64,000 nucleotides of DNA from a virus, in IMG/VR virus record IMGVR_UViG_3300033146_005641, positions 1-64,000 of that record. One strand, given 5' to 3'. A program made the position numbers and the translations under genes. Below the pieces are notes generated by a model. It worked only from the letters and a program-made list of their open reading frames with translations. It was not told the origin of the DNA and did not search any database. Shown here piece by piece: positions 32,180-35,833 of the stretch (position 1 is the stretch's first letter; every line of letters begins with the position of its first letter).

Positions 32180-32256
32180 GCCGGTTTAGCTCAGTTGGCC
32201 AGAGTGCTTCACTTGTAATGAAGAGGCCGAGGGTTCGAATCCTTCAACCGGCACCA
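32180..32256 (+). tRNA. tRNA-Thr (UGU)
   Basis: Acceptor GCCGGTT/AACCGGC, D-stem GCTC, anticodon loop CTTGTAA, T-loop TTCGAAT, discriminator A, encoded CCA. Confidence 0.95.
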
Positions 32257-32265
32257 CTTAAATAT

Positions 32266-32342
32266 CTAGGTATAGTTCAGTTAGGCAGAACACCTGGTTT
32301 GGGACCAGGAGGTCGTAGGTTCGATCCCTACTACCTAGACCA
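32266..32342 (+). tRNA. tRNA-Pro (UGG)
   Basis: Acceptor CTAGGTA/TACCTAG, anticodon stem CCTGG/CCAGG with loop TTTGGGA, discriminator A, encoded CCA. Confidence 0.95.
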
Positions 32343-32345
32343 TAT

Positions 32346-32420
32346 ACACCTATAACTCAGTGGTAGAGTACTTCTCTTACAAGGAAGGAGTCGATAGTTC
32401 GAGTCTATCTAGGTGTACCA
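32346..32420 (+). tRNA. tRNA-Val (UAC)
   Basis: Acceptor ACACCTA/TAGGTGT, D-stem ACTC/GAGT, anticodon loop CTTACAA, encoded CCA. Confidence 0.93.
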
Positions 32421-32434
32421 TGTAGATCGTAAAT

Positions 32435-32510
32435 GGGGTGTTAGCTCAGCGGGTAGAGCGCTTGTTTTGCAAGCAAGAGGTCCAGAGTTCGATTCTCTGA
32501 CATTCCACCA
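32435..32510 (+). tRNA. tRNA-Ala (UGC)
   Basis: Acceptor GGGGTGT/ACATTCC includes a G3-U70 pair, the alanine identity element. Loop TTTGCAA, encoded CCA. Confidence 0.95.
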
Positions 32511-32514
32511 TTTT

Positions 32515-32601
32515 GGATACGTCGTCAGTAGGGAGACAGCCGGTCTTGAAAACCGTGTGCGGATCAAACCGTTGTGAGTTCGAGTCTCACCGTATCCTCC
32601 A
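32515..32601 (+). tRNA. tRNA-Ser (UGA)
   Basis: Acceptor GGATACG/CGTATCC, anticodon loop CTTGAAA, long variable arm as in serine tRNAs, T-stem GTGAG/CTCAC, discriminator T (unusual for Ser), encoded CCA. Confidence 0.88.
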
Positions 32602-32702
32602 TAAAATAAAAAGGGTTTATAAATGGAAAAGAGTTTAGAGTTTAAAGGTAGCTTTAGATAATAAAATAGTTGTTTTGTGAAGCTTTTTAGATGATTTATT
32701 AC

Positions 32703-32778
32703 GCAGATATAGCTCAGCCGGTAGAGCAGAGGACTGAAAATCCTTGTGTCACAGGTTCAATCCCTGTTATCTGCACCA
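32703..32778 (+). tRNA. tRNA-Phe (GAA)
   Basis: Acceptor GCAGATA/TATCTGC, anticodon loop CTGAAAA, encoded CCA. A spacer of about 100 bases without a recognised gene precedes it. Confidence 0.94.
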
Positions 32779-32781
32779 TTT

Positions 32782-32857
32782 GCGGGTGTAACTCAGTGGC
32801 TAGAGTTCCTGCCTTCCAAGCAGGCTGTCGAGGGTTCGAATCCCTTCACCCGCTCCA
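32782..32857 (+). tRNA. tRNA-Gly (UCC)
   Basis: Acceptor GCGGGTG/CACCCGC, anticodon stem CCTGC/GCAGG with loop CTTCCAA, discriminator T, encoded CCA. Confidence 0.95.
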
Positions 32858-32862
32858 GGTGG

Positions 32863-32946
32863 GCTCCGATGGCGAAATTGGTAGACGCGCTAGATTTAGG
32901 ATCTAGTACATTGAGTGTGAGAGTTCGAGTCTCTCTCGGAGTACCA
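32863..32946 (+). tRNA. tRNA-Leu (UAG)
   Basis: Acceptor GCTCCGA/TCGGAGT, anticodon stem CTAGA/TCTAG with loop TTTAGGA, extended variable arm, encoded CCA. Confidence 0.93.
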
Positions 32947-32970
32947 AAGAAATTTAATATTTTATTTGTT

Positions 32971-32993
32971 TTTAAGGTATATTACTATATAAT
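32971..32993 (+). promoter_or_regulatory. Early-type promoter inside the tRNA cluster
   Basis: TTTAAG-N11-TATAAT after tRNA-Leu(UAG), so the cluster is read from several promoters. Confidence 0.7.
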
Positions 32994-33058
32994 ATATGTA
33001 TAAAAAGAGATAGATAATATTTTAGGTTATTTAAGTTATAATTGTTAATAATACATTT

Positions 33059-33186
33059 TATATAAACTCAAATTATATGAAGATTGGATAGACTGAGCGA
33101 ATGAGTTCGATTCTCATTAACAAAGGTATGGTACAGATCGCGAGGTAGTTAGTCGGTTCGATTCCGACATAATTTGAGTTTATATA
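33059..33186 (+). ncRNA. tRNA-like relic with an 18-bp closing stem
   Basis: Perfect 18-bp inverted repeat (33059-33076 with 33169-33186) closes a 92-base region. Inside, one T-arm (GTCGG-TTCGATT-CCGAC) abuts the 3' strand exactly as in a tRNA, with AAATTAT/ATAATTT as a 7-bp acceptor. A second T-arm-like hairpin (GAGTTCGATTCTC) occurs at about 33102. No anticodon arm or CCA. Either a fused or decayed tRNA or a tRNA mimic. Confidence 0.55.
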
Positions 33187-33307
33187 AGGCGTTGATTTTT
33201 CTCTTGTAGTGAGAGTTTCCTGTCTCGTCTGAAGCCGAATTATTAGATAGTCGTTCTAACCAAACGATACTTTTAATTTGAGGGATATTAAATAGGAAAA
33301 AATAAAC

Positions 33308-34246: not shown

Positions 34247-34254
34247 TTTTATAT

Positions 34255-34326
34255 TCCGGTGTACTCAATTGGCACGAGGCGGAGCTGTTAACTCTAAATA
34301 TGCTGGTTCAAATCCAGCCACCGGAG
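34255..34326 (+). tRNA. tRNA-Asn (GUU)
   Basis: Acceptor TCCGGTG/CACCGGA, anticodon loop CTGTTAA, T-stem GCTGG/CCAGC, discriminator G. What follows is CCCACCA, so the CCA is not encoded in the usual place. A hairpin with GAAC/GTTC follows. Confidence 0.88.
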
Positions 34327-34389
34327 CCCACCACCAAGTTTTGACTTATTGAACTTCAAAGTTCAGGTGGTGACCATCATAAAAAATAA

Positions 34390-34465
34390 GGATGAGTAGC
34401 ACAACTGGCAGTGCAACAGGTTTTGAGCCTGTGGGTTAGAGGTTCGAATCCTCTCTCATCTTCCA
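34390..34465 (+). tRNA. tRNA-Gln (UUG)
   Basis: Acceptor GGATGAG/CTCATCT, D-stem GCAC/GTGC, anticodon stem ACAGG/CCTGT with loop TTTTGAG, encoded CCA. Confidence 0.92.
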
Positions 34466-34475
34466 TTTTAAATAT

Positions 34476-34552
34476 CGCTGGCGGGAGGTAGGTATCTCAC
34501 GAGGGCTCATAACCCTTGTTAACTCGGTTCAATTCCGAGGCTTCAGTAACCA
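34476..34552 (+). tRNA. Initiator tRNA-fMet (CAU), diverged acceptor
   Basis: The anticodon stem has GGG/CCC pairs around loop CTCATAA, the initiator signature. The first base C faces A (C1xA72), also typical. T-arm CTCGG-TTCAATT-CCGAG is sound. Acceptor pairing is imperfect (one C:T mismatch, two G:U). CCA is encoded. Confidence 0.7.
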
Positions 34553-34555
34553 AAT

Positions 34556-34631
34556 ATATCAGTAGCTCTAATGGTAGAGCAGGAGATTCCAAATCTTCAG
34601 GTTGTGGGTTCAAATCCTACCTGGTATGCCA
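34556..34631 (+). tRNA. tRNA-Trp (CCA)
   Basis: Acceptor ATATCAG/CTGGTAT, D-stem GCTC/GAGC, anticodon loop TTCCAAA, discriminator G, encoded CCA. The CCA anticodon reads UGG only, so UGA stays a stop. Confidence 0.92.
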
Positions 34632-34787
34632 AAAAATTAAAAAATTTTAGTTAAGTTTTTCGACATTAAATAAAGTTTATAGGAGGCTACTCGAGCAGAA
34701 TCTAATATTCTGTGCTTCTGAAAAAGTTCCTGTGGAGATAGGACAATTATTATAGTTAACTCAGAAATTTTCTAGAAAATTTTTAGG

Positions 34788-34862
34788 GTGACTATAGTAC
34801 AACGGTTAGTACACTCGTCTGTGGAACGAGGTATTGGAGTTCGATTCTCCATAGTCACACCA
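34788..34862 (+). tRNA. tRNA-His (GUG)
   Basis: Acceptor GTGACTA/TAGTCAC with an extra G just before position 1, as usual for His. Anticodon stem CTCGT/ACGAG with loop CTGTGGA, encoded CCA. Confidence 0.93.
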
Positions 34863-34865
34863 AAT

Positions 34866-34942
34866 GCCGCCTTATCTCAGCCGGATAGAGCAGAGAACTT
34901 CTAATTCTCGGGTCACACGTTCAAATCGTGTAGATGGTACCA
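34866..34942 (+). tRNA. tRNA-Arg (UCU)
   Basis: Anticodon stem GAGAA/TTCTC with loop CTTCTAA, T-loop TTCAAAT, encoded CCA. The acceptor GCCGCCT/AGATGGT has one mismatch and two G:U pairs. Confidence 0.85.
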
Positions 34943-35297
34943 TAGAAAATTTTAATAGGTCTTCATATTAGGTTGAAGATCTACAAAGTTTTCTTATTTT
35001 TGATGAAAAATAAGTGGTGAGTCCTAATAGGCAATCAGCGCCTCTCAATCATATAATATCTGTATGTAAAACATCGACTTAGTATGATAAGCGGGAACCT
35101 AAAATAGTTTTATATTTGGCTTCAAACAAATATAAATTAAAAGTAATTCTATTGAAACTACTGACAATCTATGACAAACAGGATAAAACACTCCATTGTA
35201 TCTCTGTGATAGAAGGAAGCGGGAAAATCCTTACAAATCCTGTAGTTAAGTTATTAAAAGACCTTGAAAGAGGTCGCTTAACTTTAAGATATATAAT
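34943..35297 (+). other. 355-base stretch, probably structured RNA, unassigned
   Basis: No convincing gene. It contains GTTAAG/CTTAAC around an inner GACCT/AGGTC hairpin (about 35243-35283), TATATTTG/CAAATATA (about 35111-35134) and two AGCGGGAA motifs. An ATG-free frame opens late (35116) but reads through the next tRNA-like gene, so I do not call it coding. A diverged self-splicing intron or tRNA debris are both possible; neither is shown. Confidence 0.4.
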
Positions 35298-35370
35298 GGC
35301 TAGATTCAATGGAGAAAACTCAGATCTCATAAGTCAGAGAAGTGCGGGTCGGTGCCGCATCTAGTCACCA
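35298..35370 (+). tRNA. Degenerate tRNA-Met (CAU) candidate
   Basis: Acceptor GGCTAGA/TCTAGTC with discriminator A and encoded CCA. The anticodon loop CTCATAA is in the right place. The T-stem TGCGG/CCGCA abuts the acceptor, but its loop is GTCGGTG instead of TTCRANN, the D-arm is reduced and the anticodon stem has an A:A mismatch. The 73-base geometry fits a tRNA. It could be the elongator tRNA-Met or a dying copy. Confidence 0.55.
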
Positions 35371-35386
35371 TCGGAAGGAAAAATAA

Positions 35387-35674
35387 ATGCTAAAAGATGT
35401 CAAGAATGTAGAAGATTGTGAGATTGGAAACTATCTTTTCATTTTATTTCGACGTTCTAGGGGAAGATTTTCAGAAGCGTTTATTAGTAAAGTGATAGAT
35501 GATAACATATTTAAAAATACCCTAGTTCTGAAAGATATTAAGAATTTTACAAATCCTGAAGATATTAATCAAGAATGGTATTGTAATTTTAATTCTGAAT
35601 TTAAAGTTATTAAAAAAATAAAGAAAGAAAATATTGAAAATTTTGAAGAAAAGTTTCCTCAATATTTTATATAA
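35387..35674 (+). CDS. Hypothetical protein with PQYFI tail, within the tRNA cluster
   Basis: 95 residues (RBS GGAAGGAAA). Alpha/beta, ending FEEKFPQYFI. It lies between tRNA genes; tRNA-Cys starts two bases after its stop. Function unknown. Confidence 0.65.
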   Translation: MLKDVKNVEDCEIGNYLFILFRRSRGRFSEAFISKVIDDNIFKNTLVLKDIKNFTNPEDINQEWYCNFNSEFKVIKKIKKENIENFEEKFPQYFI

Positions 35675-35676
35675 AC

Positions 35677-35751
35677 GTCGCAATGTCTGAATGGTAAAGA
35701 ACCTGATTGCAAACCGGGTATTAGTGAGTTCGATTCTCACTTGCGACTCCA
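35677..35751 (+). tRNA. tRNA-Cys (GCA)
   Basis: Acceptor GTCGCAA/TTGCGAC, anticodon loop TTGCAAA (closing pair A:C mismatched), T-stem GTGAG/CTCAC, discriminator T, encoded CCA. Starts two bases after a stop codon. Confidence 0.9.
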
Positions 35752-35756
35752 TAGAC

Positions 35757-35833
35757 GTCTCGATAGTTCAACTGGATAGAATATTCGGCTACGGACCGAA
35801 AGGCTGAGGGTTCGAATCCTTCTCGGGACACCA
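35757..35833 (+). tRNA. tRNA-Arg (ACG)
   Basis: Acceptor GTCTCGA/TCGGGAC, anticodon stem TTCGG/CCGAA with loop CTACGGA (A34 normally becomes inosine), encoded CCA. Last tRNA of the cluster. Confidence 0.93.

What the first reader, a model, noticed from the sequence alone, without database searches (positions are those of the whole stretch)
32180..35833. tRNA set covering all 20 amino acids in one phage cluster
I could fold 24 tRNA genes: Ala, Arg x2, Asn, Asp, Cys, Gln, Glu, Gly, His, Ile, Leu x2, Lys, Phe, Pro, Ser x2, Thr, Trp, Tyr, Val, a CAU species (Ile2 or Met) and an initiator fMet, most with encoded CCA. One more degenerate Met candidate follows. Very few phages carry a full set; with the tmRNA it suggests near-independent decoding, for instance during host tRNA cleavage.
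Basis: seen in the sequence. Interest (0 to 1): 0.85.

Follow-up and report, generated by a model that had tools for sequence, protein, structure and literature searches.

The report
Phage carries minimal complete tRNA set
A large bacterial virus carries about one tRNA gene for every class of codon, plus tmRNA and tRNA-repair-like enzymes, a layout that would let it keep making protein if the host's tRNAs were destroyed; full tRNA sets are already known in a few other phages.

Summary
ARAGORN tRNAs in 32180-35833 and a tmRNA at 37842-38129; Rfam adds tRNA-Ser(GCU). All 25 end in CCA. They give one tRNA for each of the 25 decoding classes, none twice, the size of the minimum set reported for superwobble decoding in plastids (PMC3499367); the split of the three CAU tRNAs is inferred. 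A relative (L009) keeps nearly the same repertoire although gene order is scrambled and half the tRNA genes are not orthologous. The same 183-kb record encodes a T4 Rnl1-type RNA ligase, an HD-kinase fusion, a CCA-adding-type nucleotidyltransferase and an RlaP-type protein. Best reading: a decoding set kept as a set, with a tRNA-repair kit, for translation while host tRNAs are attacked; untested. Full sets are not new: mycobacteriophage Momo has all 20 amino acids plus tmRNA, and T5 has 23 of the 25 classes. Less expected: the array holds RNAs shaped like T5's unexplained "RNA2", and phage YkuK-type RNase H-like genes lie beside tRNA arrays.

The parts
32180..32256 (+). tRNA-Thr(UGU)
   Evidence: ARAGORN; RF00005 71.5 bits; CCA
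32266..32342 (+). tRNA-Pro(UGG)
   Evidence: RF00005 67.8 bits
32346..32420 (+). tRNA-Val(UAC)
   Evidence: RF00005 67.8 bits
32435..32510 (+). tRNA-Ala(UGC)
   Evidence: RF00005 67.7 bits
32515..32601 (+). tRNA-Ser(UGA); 93% identical to L009's
   Evidence: RF00005 38.6 bits
32703..32778 (+). tRNA-Phe(GAA)
   Evidence: RF00005 72.5 bits
32782..32857 (+). tRNA-Gly(UCC)
   Evidence: RF00005 68.6 bits
32863..32946 (+). tRNA-Leu(UAG)
   Evidence: RF00005 57.1 bits
33056..33189 (+). element A: tRNA-like RNA with two T-arm-like hairpins inside a 21-bp outer helix, no CCA end; like T5 'RNA2'
   Evidence: 0 of 2000 shuffles reach 21 bp; z -4.07; R1 32.7 bits, best match in the region
33308..33384 (+). 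tRNA-Lys(UUU)
   Evidence: RF00005 63.0 bits
33387..33460 (+). tRNA-Ile(GAU)
   Evidence: RF00005 71.4 bits
33466..33550 (+). tRNA-Tyr(GUA)
   Evidence: not in RF00005 hits; fold z -3.61
33556..33640 (+). tRNA-Leu(UAA)
   Evidence: RF00005 63.3 bits
33732..33817 (+). element B: smaller double T-arm tRNA-like element, 11-bp outer helix, no CCA end
   Evidence: (53 of 2000 shuffles); R1 only 11.8 bits: weaker case than A
33883..33967 (+). tRNA-Ser(GCU), missed by default ARAGORN
   Evidence: RF00005 33.1 bits; ARAGORN at -ps90; fold
34015..34088 (+). tRNA-Glu(UUC)
   Evidence: RF00005 47.9 bits
34091..34165 (+). tRNA-Asp(GUC)
   Evidence: RF00005 60.8 bits
34170..34246 (+). tRNA(CAU), probably Ile2 (C4-G69, C29-G41) reading AUA
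   Evidence: RF00005 67.8 bits; class inferred
34254..34330 (+). tRNA-Asn(GUU)
   Evidence: RF00005 51.8 bits
34390..34465 (+). tRNA-Gln(UUG)
   Evidence: RF00005 62.9 bits
34476..34552 (+). initiator tRNA-fMet(CAU): C1xA72 mismatch, three G-C pairs in the anticodon stem
   Evidence: ARAGORN 34477-34548; start corrected; 83% identical to L009's; no RF00005 hit
34556..34631 (+). tRNA-Trp(CCA)
   Evidence: RF00005 59.3 bits
34788..34862 (+). tRNA-His(GUG)
   Evidence: RF00005 65 bits
34866..34942 (+). tRNA-Arg(UCU)
   Evidence: RF00005 47.2 bits
34950..35275 (+). spacer RNA 'D': core GGCAATCAGCGCC...AAGCGGGAACC shared with arrays of relatives; function unknown
   Evidence: sub-threshold wcaG match, 24.5 bits against a cut-off of 42
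35298..35370 (+). degenerate tRNA(CAU), probably elongator Met (U4-A69)
   Evidence: ARAGORN mitochondrial mode only; no RF00005 hit
35677..35751 (+). tRNA-Cys(GCA)
   Evidence: RF00005 54.2 bits
35757..35833 (+). tRNA-Arg(ACG)
   Evidence: RF00005 61.0 bits
36021..36488 (+). YkuK-type RNase H-like protein (PF04308), beside tRNA arrays across phages
   Evidence: Pfam E 6.5e-21
37842..38129 (+). tmRNA, tag VNNTDYTPAAQVA
   Evidence: ARAGORN; RF00023 89.3 bits

Best explanation
The cluster is a complete, non-redundant phage tRNA set: one tRNA for each of the 25 decoding classes (8 four-codon boxes, the two-codon classes, Trp, the two isoleucine classes, elongator Met and initiator fMet). It is most likely maintained as a whole so that phage proteins can be made while host tRNAs are being cleaved or depleted. 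Inferred steps: the tRNAs are transcribed from the array and matured by host enzymes (CCA is already encoded), and refill the pool; phage-encoded Rnl1-type ligase, HD-kinase, CCA-adding-type and RlaP-type proteins mend cut tRNAs; tmRNA frees ribosomes that stall on missing tRNAs. Shown here: the gene set, its completeness, its conservation as a repertoire in one relative, and co-occurrence of the enzyme genes in one record. Not shown: expression, charging, enzyme activity, any host nuclease.
For: 24 secure genes cover 23 of 23 codon-box categories (three CAU classes lumped); 0 of 200,000 draws of 24 from 342 tRNAs of 20 other arrays did so, mean 14.6. With Met 35298 and three inferred CAU classes, 25 of 25. 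All 7 non-Arg four-codon boxes use U34, against 85 of 124 such tRNAs in the same 20 arrays. Relative L009: 22 of 23 categories with 25 tRNAs, 1 shared ordered neighbour pair against 0.87 expected at random, and only 12 of 24 window tRNAs are reciprocal best hits of the same isoacceptor. Genes that codon bias does not explain: Trp, Met, fMet, and Arg(ACG) although CGN is 209 of about 48,900 codons. Repair kit in the record: Rnl1-type ligase at 176104-177213 with the T4 Rnl1 C-terminal domain; HD + AAA_33 kinase at 110897-112006; CCA-adding-type head domain at 128531-129412; RlaP at 130206-131213. CCA is encoded in 25 of 25, so a CCA enzyme fits repair better than maturation. Phage tRNAs evading anticodon nucleases: PMC10264068 (abstract start and passages).
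Against: No RNA, charging or infection data; host unknown. Met 35298 is degenerate and may be dead, which would leave 24 of 25. T4-type Rnl1 also has a tail-fibre role (phrog_562), so its presence need not mean tRNA repair; it was not found in 8 of 17 YkuK-carrying records searched, some of them rich in tRNAs. The CCA-type protein is 293 aa, shorter than its solved relatives, and the family was seen in 7 of 17 records, 6 above cut-off. Only one relative (L009, a 52-kb fragment) shares the near-complete set; it lacks Arg(UCU) and has two Asn. Other close relatives' fetched arrays are incomplete, although their contigs are fragments. AUA (38.2 per 1000) and AGA (29.3 per 1000) are frequent, as codon compensation would predict for Ile2 and Arg(UCU).
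Confidence: 0.6

Rival explanations
1. Codon-usage compensation: the AT-rich phage carries tRNAs for codons that its host reads poorly.
For: AUA 38.2, AGA 29.3 and UUA 42.6 per 1000; the phage has tRNAs for each.
Against: Trp, Met and fMet have no synonymous choice; CGN is 0.43% of codons yet Arg(ACG) is kept; the set is flat, one per class, not weighted to abundant codons. The host's codon usage is unknown.
Confidence: 0.2
2. Neutral accretion: tRNA genes are gained and shuffled by recombination and homing endonucleases, and the full set is a by-product.
For: Gene order is scrambled and half of the genes are not orthologous between window and L009; degenerate and tRNA-like elements are present.
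Against: Random accretion should give duplicates and gaps: the other arrays with 20 or more tRNAs all have duplicates, and all but L042 have gaps; 0 of 200,000 draws gave 23 categories from 24 tRNAs. The draws assume independent uptake from an observed pool.
Confidence: 0.1
3. The phage itself removes host tRNAs, for instance through the YkuK-type RNase H-like protein, and its own set replaces them.
For: The YkuK-type gene lies beside tRNA arrays in unrelated phages; the RNase H-type acidic residues D33, D109 and D151 and several glutamates are invariant in 6 sequences.
Against: No known YkuK activity on tRNA; a processing or quality-control role for the phage's own precursors fits the same linkage.
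Confidence: 0.1

Closest known systems
Mycobacteriophage Momo (cluster C1; PMC4472892, passages read)
   Different: its paper says the 5'-TCN serine codons are not covered; the window's set has one tRNA per class and covers UCN
Escherichia phage T5 tRNA region (AY543070)
   Same: fMet, Met and Ile2 present; U34 tRNAs in the four-codon boxes; tRNA-like stable RNAs between the tRNAs; 23 of 25 classes in the 28-kb stretch fetched
   Different: no Leu(UAA) or CGN-Arg in that stretch, extra Ser(GGA) and Gln(CUG, marked pseudo); no tmRNA found in that stretch
T5 'RNA2', annotated as tRNA-like stable RNA with unknown functions
   Same: outer helix closed on a T-arm, second T-arm-like hairpin with loop TTCGATT in the anticodon-arm position; element A has the same loop and a start-to-start spacing of 51 against 52 nt
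   Different: element A has a 21-bp outer helix and no clear D hairpin; no alignable sequence hit in blastn
Minimum tRNA set of 25 (Alkatib 2012, PMC3499367, passages read)
   Same: number of species, initiator included; U34 tRNAs for four-codon boxes; Arg(ACG) with Arg(UCU)
   Different: plastids of tobacco, not a phage; decoding by superwobble is inferred here, and their Figure 7 was not seen
T4-type tRNA repair (Rnl1 with Pnkp; its role against PrrC is recalled)
   Same: Rnl1-type ligase with the Rnl1 C-terminal domain; a kinase with polynucleotide-kinase similarity
   Different: healing domain is HD, not the T4 HAD phosphatase (recalled); the genes are scattered over 65 kb and untested

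Membership tests
Phage tRNA array with all 20 amino acids | tRNA genes for 20 amino acids clustered in one phage record | tested here: met
Phage tRNA array with all 20 amino acids | phage genome context | tested here: met
   tail sheath, terminase, Gp23-like and DnaB-like proteins; IMG/VR record
Minimum decoding set of 25 | one tRNA per decoding class, none twice | tested here: inconclusive
   23 of 23 anticodon-box categories met; the three CAU classes are inferred from a few base pairs and Met 35298 is degenerate
Minimum decoding set of 25 | tRNAs expressed, charged and able to superwobble | not testable with these tools
   needs tRNA-seq and charging assays
T4-type tRNA repair | Rnl1 catalytic and C-terminal domains | tested here: met
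   PF09511 4.4e-22 and PF20819 4.3e-10; T4 Rnl1 chains 2c5u and 5tt6
T4-type tRNA repair | end-healing kinase and phosphatase | tested here: inconclusive
   HD + AAA_33 fusion, phrog_505 polynucleotide kinase 1.3e-13; weak match to bacterial Pnkp; no solved relative
T5 RNA2-like RNA (element A) | two T-arm-like hairpins inside one outer helix, in a tRNA array | tested here: met
   0 found in 20 shuffles of 161 kb of spacers
T5 RNA2-like RNA (element A) | matches a covariance model of T5 RNA2 above background | tested here: inconclusive
   32.7 bits, best in the region, aligned through the inner hairpin; tRNAs in other arrays reach 31.0 bits by skipping it
T5 RNA2-like RNA (element A) | stable transcript | not testable with these tools
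   T5 RNA2 is annotated as stable; the window has no RNA data
wcaG RNA (spacer RNA D) | score at or above the Rfam gathering cut-off of 42 bits | tested here: not met
   24.5 bits window, 19.7 L009, none L013
Y RNA / Ro system (elements A, B) | Ro60/TROVE protein in the phage | tested here: not met
   no PF05731 in the own record; 1 of 24 records
GOLLD / ROOL RNAs | Rfam match in the array | tested here: not met
   none in the window

The most novel reading that the evidence does not exclude
The array is a self-contained tRNA survival cassette: the minimum 25-tRNA decoding set, its own RNase H-like (YkuK-type) nuclease that acts on tRNA or pre-tRNA, and T5-RNA2-like RNAs in which a second T-arm replaces the anticodon arm and which act as decoys or regulators of tRNA-recognising enzymes, backed by a repair kit elsewhere in the genome. 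T5 RNA2, listed as a stable RNA without known function, would be one member of a wider class.
Probability: 0.15. Interest if true: 0.8.

Novelty: new variant of a known kind. Interest (0 to 1): 0.55.

Why it matters
Why phages carry tRNAs is an old question (PMC10264068, abstract start). A one-per-class set kept despite turnover of its genes, including tRNAs that codon bias does not explain, argues for replacement of the whole pool over codon compensation and makes that testable. The T5-RNA2-like elements and the YkuK linkage give two concrete new leads for unexplained phage RNA biology.

Tried and rejected
DNA polymerase (28834-31854) as a probe for relatives: no relative found. The 1104-aa tail protein in phages: no match. 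Reading the L009/window pseudoknot stretch as a coding region: rejected by eye, because changes were not concentrated at third positions and a frame did not carry across relatives. Elements A/B as Y RNAs: rejected for lack of Ro/TROVE. L009's element of the same shape: its helix is no better than chance (1141 of 2000 shuffles). The double T-arm of DLP_6 (L165 8706-8844) holds a tRNA-Thr inside (by eye) and is not taken as the same class. RtcB and Rnl2-type ligases: not found. Promoter scan: 26 sites against 24.2 in shuffles, uninformative. YkuK in solved structures: no useful match. First fold of the Met candidate used wrong coordinates and was repeated. SIY1lw is misaligned by one base in the inner hairpin of A3 and was left in the counts. 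YkuK loci were not dereplicated before counting.

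
Full report
What is there. The window is bases 1-64000 of a 183,351-base IMG/VR virus record with myovirus-type genes. ARAGORN finds 23 tRNA genes on one strand in 32180-35833 and a tmRNA at 37842-38129. Rfam's tRNA model over the whole record gives 22 matches above cut-off, all in this cluster; the union is 24 genes for 20 amino acids. A scan for tRNA grammar adds a degenerate CAU gene at 35298-35370, with no hits in 300 shuffled spacer sets. All 25 end in an encoded CCA.

How complete it is. With the three CAU genes lumped, the 24 secure genes fill 23 of 23 anticodon-box categories, with CAU the only one held twice. Drawing 24 at random from 342 tRNAs of 20 other phage arrays gave a mean of 14.6 categories, at most 20 in 20,000 draws, and never 23 in 200,000. 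The CAU genes separate by a few base pairs into an initiator (C1xA72, three G-C pairs), an Ile2-like gene (C4-G69, C29-G41) and a Met-like gene (U4-A69), and L009 shows the same three types; the assignment of Ile2 and Met rests on E. coli identity features that I recall and did not test. Taken so, the phage has one tRNA for each of 25 decoding classes. Alkatib and colleagues concluded from plastid knock-outs that 25 species, initiator included, are the minimum when superwobbling is used (PMC3499367, passages). The seven non-Arg four-codon boxes here all use U34, and arginine uses ACG with UCU as in plastids.

Kept as a set. Contig L009 carries a relative array with 25 tRNAs (23 by ARAGORN, plus two CAU genes that I added), 22 of 23 categories and a tmRNA whose tag differs from the window's at one residue. 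Gene order is scrambled (1 shared ordered neighbour pair, 0.87 expected) and 12 of 24 window tRNAs are reciprocal best hits of the same isoacceptor, while others are no more alike than any two tRNAs. Half the genes have turned over, the repertoire has stayed. This is one comparison with a 52-kb fragment; the other four close relatives' arrays cover 10 to 16 of 23 categories in the stretches fetched, and their contigs are incomplete.

Why codon bias is not enough. Over 185 ORFs of the record (about 48,900 codons), AUA, AGA and UUA are common, which fits compensation; but CGN is 0.43% of codons and Arg(ACG) is kept, and Trp, Met and fMet offer no synonymous choice.

Repair genes. The same record holds a T4 Rnl1-type ligase with the Rnl1 C-terminal domain, an HD domain fused to a polynucleotide-kinase-like domain, a CCA-adding-type head domain and an RlaP-type nucleotidyltransferase. 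RtcB and Rnl2-type ligases were not found. That such enzymes mend tRNAs cut by anticodon nucleases is recalled knowledge of T4; here it is inference. Rnl1 is also filed as a tail-fibre attachment catalyst (phrog_562), and it was found in 9 of 17 YkuK-carrying records, so the link is suggestive only.

Precedents. Momo, a cluster C1 mycobacteriophage, has 34-35 tRNAs for all 20 amino acids and a tmRNA, lacking only UCN serine (PMC4472892, passages). T5 has 23 of the 25 classes in the 28-kb stretch that I fetched. The finding is therefore a variant of a known kind. Searches for print on full sets in phages were made; they cover only the held library.

T5-RNA2-like elements. Between the tRNAs lie two tRNA-like elements with two T-arm-like hairpins and no CCA end. 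A scan of 161 kb of spacers from 23 arrays found four such doubles, window A and B, T5 RNA2 and one in DLP_6, and none in 20 shuffles of each spacer. T5 RNA2 matches 432 phage records; in 12 aligned sequences the inner loop TTCGATT is kept while its stem changes, and over the whole structure 8 pairs are changed on both sides, 0 of 500 shuffles as high (one row is misaligned there). It has no Rfam family at gathering cut-off. A model of T5 RNA2 gives element A as the best match in the array (32.7 bits), but ordinary tRNAs in other arrays reach 31.0 bits by skipping the inner hairpin, so kinship is likely in architecture and unproven by descent. Element B scores 11.8 bits and its helix is modest (53 of 2000 shuffles).

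YkuK-type gene. The RNase H-like protein at 36021-36488 (PF04308) has relatives next to tRNAs widely: 26 of 29 viral loci have at least two tRNAs within 8 kb, 22 of 26 loci have one within 3 kb, and in nine records with both genes the ligase Rnl1 has none within 8 kb where YkuK has 1 to 37. Isolates include X1, DLP_6 and RcXuper, where it sits by a peptidyl-tRNA hydrolase, and Ci1, where it sits by a CCA nucleotidyltransferase. Loci were not dereplicated. YkuK is placed in the RNase H1 clade and listed as a family of unknown function (PMC3985635, passages); one library search with YkuK found no link to phage tRNAs.

RNA D. The spacer at 34950-35275 shares a core with the arrays of the five distinct close relatives examined and resembles wcaG RNA below cut-off. 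My by-eye pseudoknot model was not tested formally.

Noticed in passing
window 34950-35275; L009 6062-6240; L013 5833; L010 13910; L014 9994; L011 9750: Conserved spacer RNA (GGYAATCAGCGCC...AAGCGGGAACC) in tRNA arrays of relatives; by eye it has covarying pseudoknots; weak wcaG resemblance.
   Followed up: partly
window 36021-36488 and relatives L009-L043, L164-L171: YkuK-type RNase H-like genes lie inside or beside phage tRNA arrays; Rnl1 in the same records does not.
   Followed up: partly
window 25275-26045, 27323-28099; record 105262-106017: QueC-, QueE- and FolE-like genes: a 7-deazaguanine pathway, for DNA or for tRNA queuosine.
   Followed up: no
record 144441-166957 (outside the window): Several ORFs with CxxxCxxC-type starts that look like radical SAM proteins (by eye).
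   Followed up: no
window 35387-35674, 36491-36706, 37365-37628: Three small ORFs in or near the array share the C-terminal ending KFPQYFI.
   Followed up: no
window 538-1830 and record 170385, 171313, 181849: Paralogous proteins that share the stretch FKDTKYGDLTGQ or close to it.
   Followed up: no
L165 8706-8844 (Stenotrophomonas phage DLP_6): A tRNA-Thr lies inside an outer helix closed on a second T-arm, like a tRNA nested in a tRNA.
   Followed up: no
L171 5341-5770; L027 6968-7169: GOLLD RNA in the tRNA array of Xanthomonas phage X1 and manA RNA in that of L027.
   Followed up: no
window 37842-38129; L009 10393-10693; L010 7054-7411: Phage tmRNA tags end in QVA or LVA rather than the usual LAA (LAA is recalled).
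   Followed up: no
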